From positions 124,001 to 188,000 of the forward strand of contig NZ_SMAK01000006.1 of assembly GCF_004346195.1 (NCBI RefSeq): a DNA stretch of 64,000 nt, given 5' to 3'. The notes below the pieces were generated by a model. It saw only the letters and a program-made list of their open reading frames with translations. It was not told the origin of the DNA and did not search any database. The stretch is from Tepidamorphus gemmatus (GTDB taxonomy: Bacteria > Pseudomonadota > Alphaproteobacteria > Rhizobiales > Tepidamorphaceae). Both the position numbers and the translations under genes were made by a program. Shown here piece by piece: positions 1 to 8,206 of this stretch; positions within the stretch are counted from its first letter, which is position 1; each line of letters begins with the position of its first letter.

Positions 1-1455
1 GACACTGGCCTCGGCAGCCGCGGCCTTGGCGCGTTCCTCGGCCAGCGCCACGACGCGCGCCTGCTCGGCGGCCTCGACCACGCGGCGGCGCTCGATGTCG
101 ATCACCTCGCGGCTGCGCTGGCTCGCGATCCGCTCCTGCTCGAGCTTGAGCTCGGTGGCGATGCGTGCGACTTCCACGGCCTCGCGGCGGGCGATCTCGG
201 CCGCTTCGACCTGCTTCTCGCGGGCGATGTCGCGGGCGCGGATTGCCTCCTCGGCCTCGATGCGGGCCGCCTCGAGCGCCTTCTGGCGCTCGATCTCGAG
301 GGTGCGGGTCGCCTGCTCGGCGGCAATCCGCTCGGCATCGAGCTTCTTGCGCTGGGCGATGCGTGCCGCCTCGACCGCCTCTTCGGCGGCGACGCGGGCC
401 TCGTCGATCGCCTGGTTGCGGCTGATCTCGCGCTCGCGGGTCTCCTCCTCGGCCTCGATGCGCTCCACTGCCAGCGCCTTCTCGCGGGCGATCCGCTGTG
501 CCTCGATTGCCCGCTGCATGGCGATCTCGGCGGCCTCGAGGGCCTCGGCGCGGGCAATCTCCAGCGCCCGGGTCTCCTGTTCGGCGGCAATGCGCTCGGC
601 GTCGAGCTTCTTGCGCTGGGCGATCCGCGCTGCCTCGACCGCCTCGTCCGCGGCCACACGGGCCTCCTCGAGCGCGCGATCGCGGGCGATCTCCTGCTCG
701 CGGGTCTCGGCCTCGGCGGCAATGCGCTCGGCGGCAAGCTCCTTCTCGCGGGCGATACGCGCGGCTTCGGTCGCCTTGCCGGCGGCGATCTCGGCGGCCT
801 CGACGGCCTTCTGCCGCTCGATCTCGAGTTCCCGGATGCGCCGGTCCTCGGCGATACGCGCCTCGTTGACCTCGGCGGCCTGGGCAATGCGGGCCCTCTC
901 GACGGCCTCGCGGGCGGCGATCTCGGCCTCGTCGAGCGCCTTCTGCCGCGCGATCTCCTGCAGTCGGACCTTCTCCTCGCCGGAGATGCGGGTCTGGTTG
1001 AGCAGCAGGGTCTGCGCCATGCGGCGCTTCTCGGTGGCTTCCCTGGCCTCGATCTCGGCCTGTTCGATCTCGCGCTGGCGGGCGATCTCGGCAGCCTGGG
1101 TCTCGCGCTCCTTGGCGATACGGGCCTCGGTGATCGCCTTTTCCTGGGCAATGCGGGCGCGTTCGGTCGCCTCGCGAGCGAGGATCTCGGCCTCCTCCAG
1201 CGCCCTCTGCTTTTCGATCTCGCGCGCCTGGGTCTCGCGTTCGTGCTCGATACGGGCCTCGCGGATGGCACGCTCCTGCAGGATGCGCGCCTTCTCGATC
1301 TCCTCGCGGGCGGCGATCTCCTCGGCCTCGATGGCACGCTGGCGCGCGATCTCGCGGGCGCGGATCTCGCGTTCGGAGGCGATCCGCTCCTCGGCGATCG
1401 CCTTCTCGTTGAGAATCCGCTTGCGCTCGATCACCTCGCGCGCAGTGATCTCGGC
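1..1455 (-). repeat. Coding repeat array: 44 hendecads (33 bp) in a 132-bp super-repeat
   Basis: Translated on the minus strand in the flotillin frame, bases 1455 to 1 split into 44 consecutive 11-codon units with no phase slip, plus one codon. Units follow a four-step pattern: ARIA..K.L.A, ERIAAE.ETR., .EIAR..ALEA and AEIA....AEA. This gives a 44-residue (132 bp) super-repeat seen about ten times. Units starting at 630 and 366 are identical in protein (ARIAQRKKLDA) and nearly so in DNA, exactly 264 bp apart, suggesting duplication of a two-super-repeat block. Confidence 0.9.
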
Positions 1456-2301
1456 CTCCTGCGCCTCGGTCTCGCGCTGCGCGCGCTCGCGGGCGAGCTC
1501 GGCGCGCTGCTGGGCACGGCGGAACTCGATCTCACGCTCCTGTTCGAGGCGCGCCGTCTCGCTCTCGCGCTCGATCTCCAGAGCCTGCTTCTCGGCCTCC
1601 AGGTTGCGCGTGCGGATCTGGATCATCGAGTCCTGCTCGATGTCGTTGCGCAGCTTGCGCTTGGCCTCGATGTCGCGGATCAGCTCGGTCAGACCTTCGG
1701 CGTCGAAGCGGTTCGACGGATTGAAGAATTCGAGGCCGGTCTGGTCGATGTCGAGGATGGCGACGGATTCGAGCTCGAGACCGTTCTTCTCCAGATCCTC
1801 CTGGGCGAGCTCGCGGACGCGGGCGACATAGGCCGCGCGGTTCTCGTGGATGCCGCTCATGTCCATCTCGGCGGCAATCGCGCGCAGGGCGCTCTCGAAC
1901 TTGCCGGACAGCAGCGCATGGAGCCGCTCCGGCTCCAGCGTGCGACGACCGAGGGTGGAGGCGGCGATGGCGACCGCGCGCCGCTCGGGCCGGACGCGGA
2001 CATAGAATTCCGCCTCCACGTCGACGCGCATGCGGTCCTTGGTGATCAGCGCGTCGGTGCCGGTGCGGCTGACCTTCAACGGCAGCACGTTCATGTTGAC
2101 CGGCGTGATGTCGTGGATGATCGGCCAGACGAAGGCGCCGCCGTCGATGACGACCTTCTCGCCCAGGAAGCCGGTCCGCACGAAGGCGACCTCCTTGGTC
2201 GAGCGGCGATAGAGCCATTGCATCACCCAGTAGACGATGGCGATGACCACCACCGCCACGATCAGCCAGAGGATGAGCTGTCCGATGAGTTGCCCGGTCA
2301 T
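1..2301 (-). CDS. Flotillin/SPFH-domain membrane scaffold protein with giant hendecad coiled coil (3' end beyond window)
   Basis: Only the first 767 codons are in the window; the frame is open to base 1. One N-terminal membrane helix (about residues 5-27) is followed by an SPFH/Band 7 domain (about 32-225) with flotillin-like sequence. From residue 283 to the edge the protein is an uninterrupted array of 11-residue units of the form x-[R/E]-I-A-x-x-x-x-[A/L/I/V]-x-x, 44 copies in view. Flotillins form oligomeric membrane microdomain scaffolds; their C-terminal Glu/Ala-rich helices build the cage wall. Ordinary flotillins are about 430-550 residues, so this one is unusually long. ATG at 2301 is preceded by a GGGGAAG ribosome-binding site. 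The gene lies 31 bases after the PEP-hydrolase-family gene on the same strand, so co-transcription with the transporter cluster is possible. Family call sure; partner unknown. Confidence 0.9.
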   Translation of the reverse strand, partial: MTGQLIGQLILWLIVAVVVIAIVYWVMQWLYRRSTKEVAFVRTGFLGEKVVIDGGAFVWPIIHDITPVNMNVLPLKVSRTGTDALITKDRMRVDVEAEFYVRVRPERRAVAIAASTLGRRTLEPERLHALLSGKFESALRAIAAEMDMSGIHENRAAYVARVRELAQEDLEKNGLELESVAILDIDQTGLEFFNPSNRFDAEGLTELIRDIEAKRKLRNDIEQDSMIQIRTRNLEAEKQALEIERESETARLEQEREIEFRRAQQRAELARERAQRETEAQEAEITAREVIERKRILNEKAIAEERIASEREIRAREIARQRAIEAEEIAAREEIEKARILQERAIREARIEHERETQAREIEKQRALEEAEILAREATERARIAQEKAITEARIAKERETQAAEIARQREIEQAEIEAREATEKRRMAQTLLLNQTRISGEEKVRLQEIARQKALDEAEIAAREAVERARIAQAAEVNEARIAEDRRIRELEIERQKAVEAAEIAAGKATEAARIAREKELAAERIAAEAETREQEIARDRALEEARVAADEAVEAARIAQRKKLDAERIAAEQETRALEIARAEALEAAEIAMQRAIEAQRIAREKALAVERIEAEEETREREISRNQAIDEARVAAEEAVEAARIAQRKKLDAERIAAEQATRTLEIERQKALEAARIEAEEAIRARDIAREKQVEAAEIARREAVEVARIATELKLEQERIASQRSREVIDIERRRVVEAAEQARVVALAEERAKAAAAEASV

Positions 2302-2332
2302 TGGTCGTATCTTCCCCGTCTTGGCCCGCTGG

Positions 2333-3160
2333 TCAGCGCCTCGAAATGCGCTTGAAGGCGCGCGTCTGATTGGTCAGTGCCACTTCCGCCGGCAGCCGCT
2401 CCATCGAGGAGGCACCGTAGAAGCCGTGGCAGGTGGTGGTGTTCTTCAGGATGAATTCCGCGTCTTCCGGCATCGCCACCGGCCCGCCATGCACCAGGAT
2501 GATGGTGTCGCGCTTGACCTTCAGCGCCGCCTCAGCCCAGCGATCGACGATCTCCGGGCAGTCGGCGAGCTTCAGGGCGGTCTCCGCGCCGATGCTGCCG
2601 CCGGTCGTCAGCCCCAGATGCACGACGATGATGTCGGCGCCGGCGCCGGCCATCGCCGCGGCGGTATCCTCGCAGAAGACATACGGCGTGGTGAGCAGAC
2701 CCTTGGCGCGGGCCTTGGCGATCATGTCGACCTCGAGACCGTAGCCCATGCCGGTCTCCTCGAGATTGGCGCGGAAGACGCCGTCGATCAGCCCGACCGT
2801 CGGAAAATTCTGGACGCCGGCAAAGCCGAGCCGGGCGATCTCGTCGAGAAACACGTCCATGTTGCGGAACGGGTCGGTGGCGCACACCCCGGCCAGTACC
2901 GGGGTGTGCCTGACCACCGTCAGCACCTCGCGGGCCATCTCGACGACGATGGCGTTGGCATCGCCATAGGGCATCAGCCCGGCGAGGCTGCCGCGCCCGG
3001 CCATGCGAAAGCGGCCCGAGTTGTAGATCACGATCAGGTCGATGCCGCCGGCTTCCTCGCACTTGGCCGACAGGCCGGTGCCGGCGCCGCCGCCGACGAT
3101 CGGTTCGCCGCGCGCGATCATGGCACGGAATTTTTCCAGGATACCGGCGCGATCCATCAT
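2333..3160 (-). CDS. Phosphoenolpyruvate hydrolase family protein (Tm-1 C-terminal-like TIM barrel)
   Basis: This 275-residue TIM-barrel protein belongs to the PEP-hydrolase-like family that also forms the C-terminal half of the tomato virus-resistance protein Tm-1. Visible family features are a glycine-rich segment near residues 23-33 ([11 protein letters not shown]), [13 protein letters not shown] at about 46-58, and [12 protein letters not shown] towards the C-terminus. The family fold resembles PEP mutase/isocitrate lyase-type barrels; its reaction in bacteria is not firmly known to me. The ATG at 3160 overlaps the stop of the upstream LivF-UPF0261 fusion gene as ATGA, so the two are translationally coupled. 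A second ATG at 3157 is an alternative start. The coupled pair reproduces the two halves of Tm-1. Confidence 0.88.
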
Positions 3161-5343
3161 CGGTGACTGTCCCTTCTGCGGGCCGGGCGCGGCCCCTGAT
3201 GCAGGCTGCGGAAGGCCGCGACGATGGCGGCGGCGAACTGCGGATCGTTGATGTTGTGCGGCACGCGCAGCAGCTGGCGCGCAGGGGTCTGGCGGACCGT
3301 TGCCTCGAGCGCCTGGAACAGGGCTTCGCGCGCCGCCGGATCATGGAAGGGCTGGCCGGGCGCATCCAGCGCCGAGACACCGCCCTCGGGCAGGAAGAAG
3401 CGCACCGGCCCTTCCATCCGGTTGAGCCGTTCGCCGATCCACCGGCCCATCGCGGCGCATTCCTCCGCCGTGGTGCGCATCAGCGTCACCTGGGGATTGT
3501 GCTGGTAGAAGACCCGGCCGGCATACTTGGCCGGCACGGTGTCCGGCGGACCGAAATTGACCATGTCGAGCGCGCCCACGGATCCGATATAGGGGATGCG
3601 GGTGCGGATCACGGCACCGAAACGGTCATCGGTGCAGGGGAACACCCCGCCCATCATCATGTCGCAGACCTCGGTGGTGGTGAGGTCGATGACGCCGGTC
3701 ATCTTGCCGCCGTCGATCAGCTTCTCCATCGCCTGGCCGCCAATGCCGGTGGCGTGGAACACCAGACAGTCCCACTCGCCATGCAGCGCCTCGACGACCT
3801 GCTGGACGCAGCGCGTGGTGACGCCGAACATCGTCAGTCCGATCGCCGGCCTGGCGGCGCCGCGCGGACGGGCGGCGCGGCGCGCCTGGACCATGCCGAC
3901 CATGGCGTGCGCGGCGTTGGCGAGCACCTCCTCGGTGATCGCGTTCAGCCCCTGAACGTCCGCGACCGAATGCATCATGGTGATGTCGGCCGGACCGACA
4001 TAGCGGCGCACATCGCCCGAGGCGACGGTCGAGACGATGAGCTTGGGCACCCCGACCGGCAGCGCCCGCATCGCCGGCGCAACGATTGCCGTGCCGCCCG
4101 ATCCGCCTGCACTGATGATGCCGGCGATGCCCTGCTGGCGGACGATCCAGCGGGCGAACGCCTCGGTCATGCCGGCGACGGCCTGGCCGCGATCGCCGGT
4201 GAAGACGCCGGACGCGCCGCGCGGATGGAAGGCCGCGATCTGATGGGCGGGAATCTCGGCGCCGGAGTGGCCGCCGGTCGTCGACAGGTCGACCAGCCGC
4301 ACCGGCAGACCGGCGGCACGGATCAGGTCGCGGATGTAGCGCAGTTCGGCGCCCTTGGTATCGAGCGTGCCCGCCACCAGCACGACCTCCGCGCCGGGCG
4401 CGGCAAGCGGGCGCAGTTCGGTCTGTGCCGAGGCGAGTGGGGCCACCGGCGCGGTCGTCACGATCCGGGCGGTCCGCTCGATGGTCGCCACCGGTACCGG
4501 CTGCGACCAGCGGGTCGGCGGATGCGGGTTCGACAGGTAGATGCGGACCGGTCCGCCGGCCGGCTCCTGCTGGCGTGCGGGCGAAGCCTCGGGCGCGGCG
4601 GGCATCGGCGTGTCGTCGTGGCCGTGGCGCCCGACCCCGAGCAGGCGTTGCTGCAGATCGCGGTCAGCGGCCAGTTCGCGCGCCGGGGCCGTGCGGTTGA
4701 TCCGGCCGTTGACCATGATCGCGACCTGCTGCGCCACCTCGCAGGCCACGCCGATGTTCTGCTCGATCACCAGGACGTCGATCTCGCCGTCCTCGGCGAG
4801 GCGGATCATCATCTCCTCGACCTGGGCGACGATCACCGGGGCAAGGCCCTCGGTCGGCTCGTCCATGACCAGCAGCTGCGGATTCTGCAGCAGCGCGCGC
4901 GAGATCGCCAGCATCTGCTGCTCACCGCCCGACAGCTGGGCGCCGCCATTGTTGCGCCGCTCGGCCAGCCTCGGGAAGGTCGCGTAGATGCGCTCGATGG
5001 TCCATGCGCCCTTGCGCCCGGCGACGACGCGCAGGTGCTCGTCCACCGTCAGCGAGCGCCACAGCCGCCGTCCCTGCGGGACATAGCCGATGCCGAGCCT
5101 GGCAATCTCCGCCGGCGAGCGGCCAACCAGCGGCTGGCCGCGGAAGGAGATGGTGCCCGACGCGACGGGGACGAGGCCCATGATTGCCTTGCACAGCGTG
5201 GTCTTGCCCATGCCGTTCCGGCCGACCACCGACAGCACGCCGGAGTCGAGCCGCAGATCGACCCCCTGCAGCGCGTGCGACGCGCCGTAGAAGACATTGA
5301 GACCGCGGATCTCCAGGGCGGGCGGACCGACACGCTCAGCCAT
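3157..5343 (-). CDS. Fusion protein: LivF-type ABC ATPase + UPF0261 (Tm-1-like ATP-binding) domain
   Basis: A 728-residue protein with two clear parts. Residues 1-240 are a branched-chain amino acid/amide-type ABC ATPase: Walker [10 protein letters not shown] at 41-49, signature LSGGEQQ at 137-143, Walker B LLVMDEP at 157-163. A proline- and alanine-rich linker of about 75 residues follows. From about residue 318 ([13 protein letters not shown]) to the end lies a full UPF0261/Tm-1-like domain, a family normally encoded as a stand-alone protein of about 400 residues. The gene overlaps the LivG-type gene upstream by 8 bases and the PEP-hydrolase-family gene downstream by 4 bases. The ATPase half presumably completes the LivHMG transporter; what the UPF0261 half does there is unknown. 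The reading frame is continuous across the linker. Confidence 0.9.
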
Positions 5344-6130
5344 GGCCGCCTCCCAGATAGAGTTCCTGGACCTCCGGATCGTTCTCGATCTCGGCCGGCG
5401 TTCCTTCCTTGAAGATCCGACCGTTGTGCATCATCGTGACGCTCTCCGCGACACGCAGCGCCACGTCCATGTCGTGCTCGATGATGATGAAGCCGATGTG
5501 CGGCGGCAGGCCGGTAAGGATCGCGACCAGCTCGGCCCGTTCGGTCGGCGACAGGCCGGCAGCCGGCTCGTCGAACAGGATGAGGCGCGGCGCACCAGCC
5601 AGCGCCAGCGCGATCTCGAGCTGGCGCTGCTGTCCGTAGCTGAGCTCGCTGACCAGCGTCTGGCTGGAGGCGGTGAGGTGGACCGCCTCGATCAGCTCGG
5701 CGGCACGCGCCACCAGGACGTCGCCGCGGCGCGGGCGCAGCAGCGAGAACCGCCCGCGGCTGACGCCACGACAGGCGAGATAGACGTTGTCGGCGACCGT
5801 GAGGCCACCTAACAGCAGGCTGATCTGATAAGTGCGGCGCAGGCCGCGCCTGATCCGCTCGTGCGCCGGGAAGCGGGTGACATCCTCGCCGAACAGCCGG
5901 ATCGTGCCGGACGTCGGAAGGAAATCGCCGGTGATGCAGTTGAACAGCGTGGTCTTGCCAGCGCCGTTCGAGCCCAGCACCGCCCGCCGCTCGCCGGCGC
6001 GCACGGTCATCGTCACGTCGCCGATCGCCGCGAGCGCGCCGAACATCTTGGTGACGCCGCGCAATTCGAGCGCCGCGTCGGTGCTGACCGAGCCGAGACG
6101 ACCGGCGGTGGCAGCGACGATCGCCATCAC
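5336..6130 (-). CDS. Branched-chain amino acid-type ABC transporter ATP-binding protein (LivG-like)
   Basis: A 264-residue ABC ATPase with Walker [10 protein letters not shown] at 53-61, signature LSYGQQRQ at 163-170, Walker B LILFDEP at 183-189 and the LivG-type C-terminal segment that ends near EVQELYLGG. The LSYGQQR form of the signature is typical of the hydrophobic amino acid/amide uptake family. It would sit on the inner face of the membrane and pair with the LivF-type half of the following fusion protein. The frame opens with GTG at 6130 directly followed by ATG at 6127; the ATG overlaps the LivM stop as TGATG, and either codon could be the start. The true substrate is unlikely to be leucine given the catabolic neighbours. 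Confidence 0.93.
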
Positions 6131-7179
6131 TCGGCCTCCCTGCCGGTCAGCGGGTCACGCCGGCGCATCCGCGCCCGCCAGCGGTCCCACAGGCCCAGGA
6201 CGCCATCCGGCGAGAAGAACACCACCGCCAGGAAGCCAAGGCCGATCAACAGCTTGAACCGCTCGGTGGACAGTCCGAAACTGGACAGGATGTCGGGCGT
6301 GAACGTGCGCAGCAGAATGTAGATCAGCGCGCCGATGAACGGGCCGATTGGCCGGCGCAGTCCTCCGACGACGGCGATCACGAGGATGTCGATCACCGCC
6401 GGAATGCCCACGGTGCCGGGCGAGATCTGCGCATTCTGCCAGACCAGCAGGATGCCGCCGATCGACGCCAGCACACTGGCGAAGGCATAGGCCGCGATGC
6501 GATGGGCGGTGACGTTGAAGCCAAGCGCCGCCATGCGCCGCGGATTGTCGCGCACCCCCTGCAGCGCAAGCCCGAACGGCGAGCGCGACACATAGACCAC
6601 CGCCGCATAGGCGAGCACCGCGCAGCCGAGCGAAAGATAGTAGAACGGGACCGGCTGGCGCCAGTCGATGCCGAACAGTTGCGGCGGCAGGATCAGGTTG
6701 AAGCCGGTATATCCGTTGAAGATCACGTAGTTCTGGCGGGCGAAGTAGAAGAAGGCCGCGGCGATCGCCAGCGTGATCATGATCGTGTAGATGCCCTCGG
6801 TGCGCACCGCGAGGGCACCGACGACGGTGCCGAACACTGCCGCGATGATGATCGCGAGCGGGATGTAGAGCCACCAGGCAAGCCCGAGGCTGATCGTCTC
6901 GACGCCCGACGGTCCCAGAATCGCGACCATGTAGCCGCCGACGCCGGCGACCGTCATCTGCACCAGGCTGACCATGCCGCCGTAGCCGGCCAGGAACATC
7001 AGGCTGAGCGCGATGATGCCAAGGATGAACGTCCAGCCGAACACCTGAAACAGCCAGAAACTGTTGGCGAAGGCCGGCATCAGCAACATCACGAAGCCGA
7101 CAACCCACCAGGCCGGAGGGATGCGCTCGAACCAGGCCGGAGCCAGTCCGCCGCGCGCCGCGTGCTCGATCACCGCCAT
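6127..7179 (-). CDS. Branched-chain amino acid-type ABC transporter permease (LivM-like)
   Basis: A 350-residue integral membrane protein with the LivM layout: several hydrophobic helices, the conserved stretch FNGYTGFN near the middle, the RDNPRRMAALGFNV segment typical of this permease family, and a charged C-terminus. It forms the inner-membrane channel with LivH. It starts 13 bases after the LivH-type gene and ends inside the start of the LivG-type gene, so all four transporter genes read as one transcript. Confidence 0.93.
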   Translation of the reverse strand: MAVIEHAARGGLAPAWFERIPPAWWVVGFVMLLMPAFANSFWLFQVFGWTFILGIIALSLMFLAGYGGMVSLVQMTVAGVGGYMVAILGPSGVETISLGLAWWLYIPLAIIIAAVFGTVVGALAVRTEGIYTIMITLAIAAAFFYFARQNYVIFNGYTGFNLILPPQLFGIDWRQPVPFYYLSLGCAVLAYAAVVYVSRSPFGLALQGVRDNPRRMAALGFNVTAHRIAAYAFASVLASIGGILLVWQNAQISPGTVGIPAVIDILVIAVVGGLRRPIGPFIGALIYILLRTFTPDILSSFGLSTERFKLLIGLGFLAVVFFSPDGVLGLWDRWRARMRRRDPLTGREAE

Positions 7180-7192
7180 GTCAGCCTCCCGC

Positions 7193-8206
7193 TCATCGCC
7201 GGCTGCCCAGGAGGCCCTGCGGCCGGAAGGCCAGCACCGCCGCCATGATCAGGAACGTGAACACGACCGAATAGGTCGGCGCATAGACGAGGCCGATCTG
7301 CTCGGCGAGACCGATGATCAGCGCGCCGAGCGCCGCGCCGGGGATCGACCCCATGCCGCCGACGATTACCACGACCAGCGAGGCCAGCAGGAAGCGGGTA
7401 TCCTCGCCGGGGCTCAGGCTCTGGAAGGTGCCGCCGACGATGCCGCCGATGCCGGCCAGGCCCGCGCCGAAGGCAAACACGGCAAGAAAGACGTACTGAA
7501 TGCGGATGCCCGAGGCGGTCAGCATCTCGCGGTCATCGACGCCGGCGCGGATCAGCATGCCGAGCTTCGTGCGGTTGAGCACCACCCACATGGCGATGCC
7601 CATGACGATCGCCGCGATGAGGATCACGATGCGCACCTGCGGGTAGCGCAGATAGGAATATTCGCCCGACCGGTCGACACCCGAGATAATCGGTAGCTCC
7701 ATCGGACCCGACAGCCATTGCGGCGCCAGGATGGTGTAGGACTGGCCGCCCCAGATCCACAGCATGATGTCGGCCAGCACGACCGACAGGCCGATCGTGA
7801 CCATGGTCTGGCGCAGTTCCTCGCCTTCCATCCGCCGGAAGACCTGATGCTGGAGGACGACGCCGATCAATGCGACGATCAGGAACACCAGCGGAAAGGC
7901 CAGCAGCCACCAGCCCGTCGCCTCGGAAATCTCGAAGCCCAGATAGCCGCCGAGCAGATACAGCGAGCCATGCGCCAGGTTGACATTGCGCATCAGGCCG
8001 AAGATCAGCGTGAATCCGGTCGCGATCAGGAAGTACAGGGCACCGAGCGTGATGCCGGAGAAGATTGCGTTGAGGAAGATGCGCTTGCGCCCCATCGCCT
8101 CCTCCAGACCCGGCGGCCACGGGGCAAGGATCAGCCACAGGATCACCGCCGCGACGAGCGCGATGATGACCGACCAGATCGGGTGGCGCCTGACATAGTC
8201 CTGCAT
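7193..8206 (-). CDS. Branched-chain amino acid-type ABC transporter permease (LivH-like)
   Basis: A 337-residue membrane protein with LivH signatures: LIFGLMRNVNLAHG near residues 70-85, RAGVDDREM in the cytoplasmic loop, and a glycine-rich VVVIVGGMGSIPGA stretch that is the coupling/EAA-like region. It carries an extra N-terminal hydrophobic helix (about residues 10-30) before the part normally conserved. It heads the livHMGF-type unit. Between it and the upstream AraC gene lie 141 bases with a 9-bp hairpin (8239-8259), so the permease genes may have their own promoter or be attenuated. Confidence 0.93.
   Translation of the reverse strand: MQDYVRRHPIWSVIIALVAAVILWLILAPWPPGLEEAMGRKRIFLNAIFSGITLGALYFLIATGFTLIFGLMRNVNLAHGSLYLLGGYLGFEISEATGWWLLAFPLVFLIVALIGVVLQHQVFRRMEGEELRQTMVTIGLSVVLADIMLWIWGGQSYTILAPQWLSGPMELPIISGVDRSGEYSYLRYPQVRIVILIAAIVMGIAMWVVLNRTKLGMLIRAGVDDREMLTASGIRIQYVFLAVFAFGAGLAGIGGIVGGTFQSLSPGEDTRFLLASLVVVIVGGMGSIPGAALGALIIGLAEQIGLVYAPTYSVVFTFLIMAAVLAFRPQGLLGSRR

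What the first reader, a model, noticed from the sequence alone, without database searches (positions are those of the whole stretch)
1..1455. Flotillin with at least 44 consecutive perfect-phase hendecads in a 44-residue super-repeat
Reading the minus-strand frame shows 485 codons that split into 11-residue units without one insertion or deletion. The positions cycle RI, RI, EI, EI, giving a 4 x 11 super-repeat about ten times. Hendecads favour near-straight helical bundles, not left-handed heptad coils, and 485 residues of helix would be about 70 nm long. Known flotillins have far shorter Glu/Ala-rich helices, so this could build an unusually tall cage or a spacer that reaches other structures.
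Basis: partly seen in the sequence, partly recalled or inferred. Interest (0 to 1): 0.8.

Follow-up and report, generated by a model that had tools for sequence, protein, structure and literature searches.

The report
Giant flotillin built in 11-residue steps
A membrane-scaffold protein, a flotillin, has a helical wall about four times longer than in solved relatives; across bacterial relatives this wall grows almost only in steps of 11 amino acids, which suggests that it builds taller versions of the known flotillin cage.

Summary
The full gene (942 bp run past the window) codes for 1080 aa: hydrophobic N-terminal helix, SPFH domain, ~600 residues of 11-residue repeats, flotillin C-terminal domain. 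The repeat keeps one phase from residue ~268 to ~763, shifts by 3 residues, then keeps phase to ~869.

Long relatives carry about 20-71 repeats (87 complete proteins). New here: the SPFH-to-Flot distance is quantised in 11s. In 154 of 156 flotillins, about 530-1259 aa long, it equals 4 or 7 modulo 11; 41 of 43 distinct lengths (224-920) obey. A neighbouring linker in the same proteins is not quantised. The 4 x 11 super-repeat is a ++-- charge wave at repeat position 8, but 11, not 44, is the length step.

Giant flotillins were described in 2009 (PMC2636767); four searches of the held library listed no 11-residue rule. The published flotillin wall is a right-handed barrel (PMC11260169), which suits 11-residue repeats. 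Best reading: a taller cage, perhaps 50-75 nm (extrapolated). AlphaFold2 gives long helices with two low-confidence breaks. Assembly and function are inferred.

The parts
1..2301 (-). flotillin gene, residues 1-767 of 1080; the 3' end lies 942 bp beyond the window (G000:C6:123059-126301)
   Evidence: Pfam Band_7 and Flot
2212..2283 (-). N-terminal hydrophobic helix (residues about 7-30), read as a membrane anchor
   Evidence: sequence; helix 2-36 in the model of the relative L058; no topology predictor was run
1744..2193 (-). SPFH / Band_7 domain, residues 37-186
   Evidence: Pfam PF01145, E 4.4e-14
13..1500 (-). 11-residue repeat array in one phase, residues about 268-763
   Evidence: in 84 arrays Ile mostly at position 9, I/L/V/T at 4, charge wave at 8
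1..87 (-). zone of the conserved 3-residue phase shift (residues about 739-767); a further ~10 repeats follow, mostly outside the window, to about residue 869
   Evidence: same shift in 61 of 87 complete long proteins
976..1011 (-). odd landmark repeat, residues 431-442 (TRIxGE); one AlphaFold2 break (436-442) falls here
   Evidence: motif in 39 of 87 giants
245..940 (.). DNA-level tandem repeats of 132 and 264 bp (44 and 88 codons), 67-81% matching; a further 132-bp pair at 1083-1320
2333..3160 (-). PEP_hydrolase-like gene, conserved neighbour
   Evidence: PF09370; present at 85 of 90 long-flotillin loci
3157..5343 (-). ABC ATPase fused to UPF0261, conserved neighbour
   Evidence: PF00005, PF06792, PF23189; UPF0261 part found at 85 of 90 loci
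5336..8206 (-). ABC ATPase and two branched-chain-type permeases of the same gene cluster
   Evidence: synteny

Best explanation
It is a flotillin whose cage wall has been lengthened by adding 11-residue units. Each unit is three turns of a helix at about 3.67 residues per turn, so an added unit returns the chain to almost the same rotational position. The cap domain at one end and the SPFH domain at the other then stay in phase with the neighbouring subunits. Many copies would stand side by side as staves of one right-handed barrel fixed to the inner membrane by the N-terminal helix. Rows of Ile/Val side chains on two faces and a ++-- charge wave would hold neighbours together. Shown: the repeat, its phase, the step size, the conservation. 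Inferred: the cage, its height (about 50-75 nm if the geometry of the human cage is kept) and the stave contacts. Its job in the conserved transport / molybdenum-hydroxylase gene cluster is a guess: a compartment or membrane platform for these enzymes.
For: Domains at both ends. SPFH-Flot interval modulo 11 is 4 or 7 in 154 of 156 flotillins and 41 of 43 distinct lengths; of the moduli 5-19 no other fits (next 20 of 43), and simulated random lengths reach at most 31 of 43 at their best modulus in 2000 draws. Three more flotillins fetched later conform, one from a phage. The linker just after the Flot anchor is not quantised (21 lengths over all 11 remainders) and the interval inside the SPFH domain is fixed (159 residues in 154 of 156). 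Two-sided helix: position 9 is 94% and position 4 is 74% large hydrophobic, about 130 degrees apart; ++-- wave at position 8 (-0.71 at 2 units, +0.64 at 4; 84 arrays, 3387 units). Published flotillin wall: one-layer right-handed barrel without heptads, glued by charges (PMC11260169). The FLOT1 wall has its main hydrophobic period at 2.216, near 2.2.
Against: No oligomer could be modelled. AlphaFold2 monomer models have low to middling confidence (mean pLDDT 61 and 80) and break the helix twice. Human FLOT1 does not fit the 4/7 classes with anchors that I placed by hand on the alignments (interval about 170-177, remainder 5 or 1; alignment uncertain). Two of 156 fail (L081, L204). Four distant SPFH proteins with weak C-domain matches (L237, L238, L241, L242) gave remainders 7, 3, 2 and 0 and were not counted. 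The rule was tested in Pseudomonadota only (plus one phage of such a host). Repeat slippage alone could produce steps of 11 in the giants, though less easily in the short flotillins.
Confidence: 0.68

Rival explanations
1. Mutation bias only: tandem 33-bp or 132-bp repeats gain and lose whole units by slippage or unequal crossing-over, and the 11-step needs no structural selection.
For: 132- and 264-bp tandem repeats remain visible in the DNA at 67-81%; close relatives mostly share lengths and distant ones do not.
Against: Short flotillins, which have at most about one ++-- period, also step by 11 (224, 235, 246, 257, 268). Apart from the +3 shift no non-11 shift was detected in arrays of 45,230 residues (two compensating indels within the 33-residue scan could be missed), although the linker next door varies freely. 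The +3 state recurs (at least 6 changes on the tree).
Confidence: 0.2
2. The repeat region folds back into an antiparallel bundle or breaks into separate helices, so that the particle is thicker rather than taller.
For: AlphaFold2 shows two breaks (413-428 and 604-619 in L058; 436-442 and 611-621 in the window protein); Gly441 lies in one.
Against: The breaks have pLDDT near or under 50 and the first does not fall at the same place in the two models; no proline there; the 11-phase runs unbroken through both; lengths change by units that keep the relation of both ends, which a hairpin would not need.
Confidence: 0.15
3. Membrane-lying amphipathic helix: an 11-residue repeat that coats a lipid surface, as recalled for perilipin 4, synuclein or LEA proteins.
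For: 11-residue period; the protein is probably membrane-anchored.
Against: Large hydrophobics flank a charged stripe and sit on two faces, rather than one continuous greasy face; position 2 (71% charged) lies at the edge of the weak Ala face. The second angular harmonic exceeds the first (period 2.20 power 31 against 3.66 power 6.6).
Confidence: 0.06
4. Single, isolated alpha-helix stabilised by E/R pairs, acting as a stiff spacer.
For: E 20%, R 15%, A 19%; attractive i to i+4 charges.
Against: 85% Ile at position 9 is costly for an exposed single helix.
Confidence: 0.05

Closest known systems
Giant SPFH2b proteins (Hinderhofer et al. 2009, PMC2636767; passages seen; first author's name recalled)
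   Same: Flotillin-like proteins of about 800-1000 aa with a strongly expanded coiled-coil region; very probably this group.
   Different: The passages seen give no repeat unit, phase, length rule or structure. Here proteins reach 1259 aa and the unit is 11 residues.
Flotillin 1/2 cage (PMC11260169; passages and section 7 seen; PDB 9bq2 by matching chain lengths)
   Same: SPFH domain, long wall helix, cap domain; wall is a right-handed one-layer helical barrel without heptads, held by charges.
   Different: Wall 186 aa against an SPFH-Flot interval of 744 here; heteromer of two proteins; the 11-residue length rule could not be confirmed for FLOT1.
Other bacterial flotillins, about 530-755 aa (relatives found here)
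   Same: Same domains, same 11-step rule; several show one ++-- period.
   Different: Mostly about 5-7 clearly marked repeats (seven examined; one 755-aa protein has 22); mostly other gene neighbours (29 of 40 class-level loci show none of the cluster).
Hendecad coiled coils in general
   Same: 11-residue period near 3.67 residues per turn.
   Different: Hydrophobics at positions 4 and 9 on two faces, not one core stripe. A literature list was seen as titles and abstract starts only.

Membership tests
Flotillin (PF15975 / SPFH2) | SPFH/Band_7 domain near the N terminus | tested here: met
   PF01145 at 37-186, 53.3 bits, cut-off 23.6
Flotillin (PF15975 / SPFH2) | Flot C-terminal domain | tested here: met
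   PF15975 at 914-1029, 111.3 bits, cut-off 27; the only match in this genome
Flotillin (PF15975 / SPFH2) | NfeD-type partner gene | tested here: inconclusive
   None among the ten neighbours scanned with Pfam; the rest of the genome was not searched for NfeD
Flotillin (PF15975 / SPFH2) | membrane-bound oligomeric cage | not testable with these tools
   no oligomer prediction available
NCBIfam FloT equivalog NF058507 | score above 700 bits | tested here: not met
   36.3 bits
SPFH cage wall as in PMC11260169 | wall helix of 44-189 aa | tested here: not met
   SPFH-Flot interval 744 residues; the published range is
Hendecad (11-residue) repeat protein | 11-residue period kept over many units | tested here: met
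Heptad coiled coil | hydrophobic period 3.5 / 7 | tested here: not met
   not among the five strongest periods in residues 283-767
Single alpha-helix (ER/K) domain | few large hydrophobics, no periodic hydrophobic face | tested here: not met
   position 9 94% ILVMF, position 4 74%
Encapsulin compartment | Linocin_M18 shell protein in the genome | tested here: not met
   0 matches to PF04454 at E <= 10 in this genome

The most novel reading that the evidence does not exclude
Flotillin cages obey a length code: the wall can change only by whole 11-residue units (or one 14-residue variant), because each stave is offset from its neighbour by about one such unit in a right-handed barrel, and the ++-- wave sets this offset. 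One bacterial lineage used the code to grow cages 3-4 times taller, which enclose or dock a split molybdenum hydroxylase through its proline-rich tail and conserved end peptide.
Probability: 0.15. Interest if true: 0.88.

Novelty: new variant of a known kind. Interest (0 to 1): 0.66.

Why it matters
How SPFH cages set their size is open. If wall length is quantised, sequence lengths alone tell the handedness and register of the wall, and give a ready series of natural cages from 224 to 920 residues of SPFH-Flot interval with which to test how height depends on sequence. The rule is simple, was checked against an internal control, and predicts that a 3-6 residue insertion should harm assembly while an 11-residue one should not.

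Tried and rejected
A 44-residue unit of length: rejected, the interval differences divided by 11 take all remainders modulo 4. Heptad coiled coil: rejected. Encapsulin shell as docking partner for the CoxL end peptide: no shell gene found in this genome. FLOT1 as a test of the rule outside bacteria: anchors could not be placed safely, left inconclusive. Distant SPFH proteins on plasmids (L237, L238, L241, L242): C-domain matches too weak, not counted. Fold search with the models: not run, since one model is low-confidence and the other is plain helix. Papers on the gene cluster together with flotillin: nothing relevant listed (listings and abstract starts seen only).

Rows dropped before counts: from the 101 proteins (own, 20 and 80), three duplicates (L098, L101, L113), four open-ended genes (L039, L067, L106, L127) and, L075 (no C-terminal anchor). 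From loci L207-L239, 23 of 33 had both anchors; the rest were mostly long genes cut by the flank. In one search short weak runs of phase 4 (seen in L039, L048, L094) were set aside, and short shifts inside the 33-residue scan could have been missed; the anchor method does not depend on that scan. In the neighbour counts the two SRPBCC queries can hit one gene (seen at L081 and L125), so the second count may be slightly high.

Full report
What is there. The window lies at G000:C6:124001-188000 and cuts the gene; the rest was fetched. The whole gene codes for 1080 residues on the minus strand: a hydrophobic N-terminal helix, a Band_7/SPFH domain at 37-186 and a Flot domain at 914-1029, with the repeats between. 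The only solved chains found by sequence at E 0.001 are two flotillin-1 chains, 9l3g and 9bq2. It is the only Flot match in this genome; three other Band_7 matches are present.

The repeat. In residues 283-767 self-identity is 0.50 at lag 44 and 0.52 at lag 88, about 0.29-0.32 at the other multiples of 11 up to 99, against a maximum of 0.25 at any lag in 2000 shuffles. Hydrophobicity has periods 5.50, 2.75 and 2.20, all harmonics of 11; 3.5 and 7 are not among the five strongest. One phase holds from about residue 268 to 763; a second, 3 residues on, from about 740-755 to 869. Residues 204-960 hold no proline and two glycines, 441 and 508.

Relatives. A search of 61 related genomes (own included) with the first 225 residues found matches in 19. 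A scan of genome contigs kept the best 80 of at least 394 relatives, with titles from Rhodobacteraceae, Hyphomicrobiales, Roseomonas and others. Of 94 long proteins 91 are distinct and 87 complete: 61 have the phase shift of 3, 26 have none, and no other shift was detected once weak phase-4 runs were set aside; arrays hold about 20 to 71 repeats (median 46), with 1 proline and 411 glycines in 45,230 residues.

The length rule. I measured the distance from a conserved Gly at the end of the SPFH domain (residue 203) to a conserved Asn at the start of the Flot domain (residue 947). Nothing in that measurement knows about repeats. For 156 flotillins (155 of bacteria of Pseudomonadota by the search scope or record, with this one) the remainder modulo 11 is 4 in 89 and 7 in 65; two fail, L081 and L204. 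L081 differs from its sister by a 6-residue gap close to the cap. There are 43 distinct lengths from 224 to 920, of which 41 obey; for other moduli from 5 to 19 the best is 20, and random lengths reach at most 31 at their best modulus in 2000 draws. The sequences are not independent, which is why I count distinct lengths. The 40 class-level flotillins, most of them short, obey in 39 cases. Three further flotillins, one from the 469-kb phage Phosso, obey; four more distant SPFH proteins with weak C-domain matches gave remainders 7, 3, 2 and 0 and were left out. As an internal control the linker after the Flot anchor takes 21 lengths spread over every remainder.

The two states. The 7-class is the 4-class plus 3 residues (or plus 14, four turns of a 3.5-residue helix). 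On a tree of the SPFH domain the state needs 7 changes, 6 of them forced by well-supported branches; the bootstrap had not fully settled. Two nearly identical genes, L078 and L082, differ by one 14-residue deletion that removes the shift. Among long proteins, intervals are shared by 86% of 43 pairs above 95% SPFH-region identity but by 2% or fewer of pairs below 80%, so length evolves, in steps.

The charge wave. In 84 arrays (3387 repeats) position 9 is Ile in 85% and large hydrophobic in 94%, position 4 large hydrophobic in 74% and Thr in 20%. Position 8 is Arg/Lys in 50% and Glu/Asp in 42%, with autocorrelation -0.71 at two repeats and +0.64 at four. Printed out this is ++--++-- for up to eight periods without a slip, with single-repeat slips elsewhere; some short flotillins show one period, for example ++.++--.--. 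The 44-residue super-repeat is therefore this wave, probably grown by tandem duplication of 132-bp blocks still visible in the DNA. In one group of seven sequences (Silicimonas, Boseongicola) lag 77 exceeds lag 44, so the wave is not equally regular in all.

How it may work. The flotillin wall solved from human cells is a single-layer right-handed barrel of 44 helices, 186 residues long, without heptads, with charges gluing neighbours; the cage is 32 to 19 nm wide and 22 nm high (PMC11260169; passages and section 7 read). Eleven residues per three turns is the repeat of a slightly right-handed helix (general knowledge of hendecads). From the published sizes, side-by-side helices about 1 nm apart (assumed) must tilt by 48-64 degrees, which offsets neighbours by 8-13 residues, about one repeat, and gives 0.066-0.099 nm of height per residue. 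With 744 residues that is 49-74 nm. This is extrapolation: the subunit number is unknown here. The strongest hydrophobic period of the FLOT1 wall, 2.216, and of 61 short bacterial walls, 2.221, imply about 3.64 residues per turn, and the matching peak of 87 giants, 2.201, about 3.67 (conversion mine).

Structure prediction. AlphaFold2 on the relative L058 (1064 aa, same interval, 19 sequences) gave mean pLDDT 61 with helices 204-412, 429-603 and 620-948. The window part alone, residues 201-767 with two gapless relatives, gave pLDDT 80 with helices at residues 202-435, 443-610 and 622-766. The breaks score near or under 50; the second overlaps in both models, the first does not. This neither proves nor refutes one continuous helix.

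Gene neighbours. The gene sits in a conserved cluster: two branched-chain-type permeases, an ABC ATPase, an ABC ATPase fused to UPF0261, a PEP_hydrolase-like protein, the flotillin, two SRPBCC-type proteins (Pfam Polyketide_cyc2), CoxM, CoxS, CoxL (Cox and SRPBCC names are mine, from the Pfam hits and from neighbouring records). Of 90 long-flotillin loci 85 have the UPF0261 part, 85 the PEP_hydrolase-like gene, 86 each SRPBCC query, and 77-82 the Cox genes; 89 have the PEP_hydrolase-like or first SRPBCC gene and the last is a 3-kb contig. Of 40 class-level loci, fetched with short flanks, 11 have immediate neighbours of the cluster and 29 show none. Within the cluster the interval runs from 235 (L201) and 246 (L178, L185, L195, L236) to 920, so the wall probably grew inside one gene neighbourhood.

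Novelty. Giant SPFH2 proteins of 800-1000 aa with expanded coiled coils were reported in 2009 (PMC2636767; passages seen). Searches of the held library for flotillin with hendecad, SPFH with hendecad or 11-residue terms, giant or long flotillin and flotillin with residues per turn listed no account, in titles and abstract starts, of an 11-residue register or length rule; papers outside that library were not searched. The giants are known; the 11-residue anatomy and the length rule appear to be new.

Noticed in passing
L006:2125-4853 (outside the window, 3' of the flotillin): CoxL is encoded as two adjacent genes. The first ends in a proline-rich tail and a conserved end peptide, RFSS(L/I)SG(F/L)RRR; it ends so in 10 of 12 cases whose end is held (own and 11 of 77 loci; 66 were cut), with near variants in the other two. 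It looks like a docking peptide.
   Followed up: partly
L240 (Sinorhizobium phage Phosso, PV764938.1): A 469-kb phage carries a short flotillin with interval 224, obeying the 11-residue rule.
   Followed up: partly
window 976-1011 (residues 431-442): A conserved odd repeat with Gly (TRIxGE), in 39 of 87 giants, 31 of them at the same residue number; possible hinge or landmark.
   Followed up: no
L078 and L082: Near-identical giant flotillins differ by one 14-residue deletion that abolishes the +3 phase shift.
   Followed up: no
L006:148-2123: Two ORFs read from recall as VWA (coxE-like) and MoxR (coxD-like) proteins follow CoxL, suggesting a Mo-hydroxylase maturation set (not tested with a library).
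   Followed up: no
L236 (Variovorax paradoxus plasmid) 579-4584: The same neighbour set (permease, PEP hydrolase, flotillin, two SRPBCC) with a short 562-aa flotillin.
   Followed up: yes
L075: A long flotillin (917 aa) without a recognisable Flot end; left out of the length count. Cause not examined.
   Followed up: no
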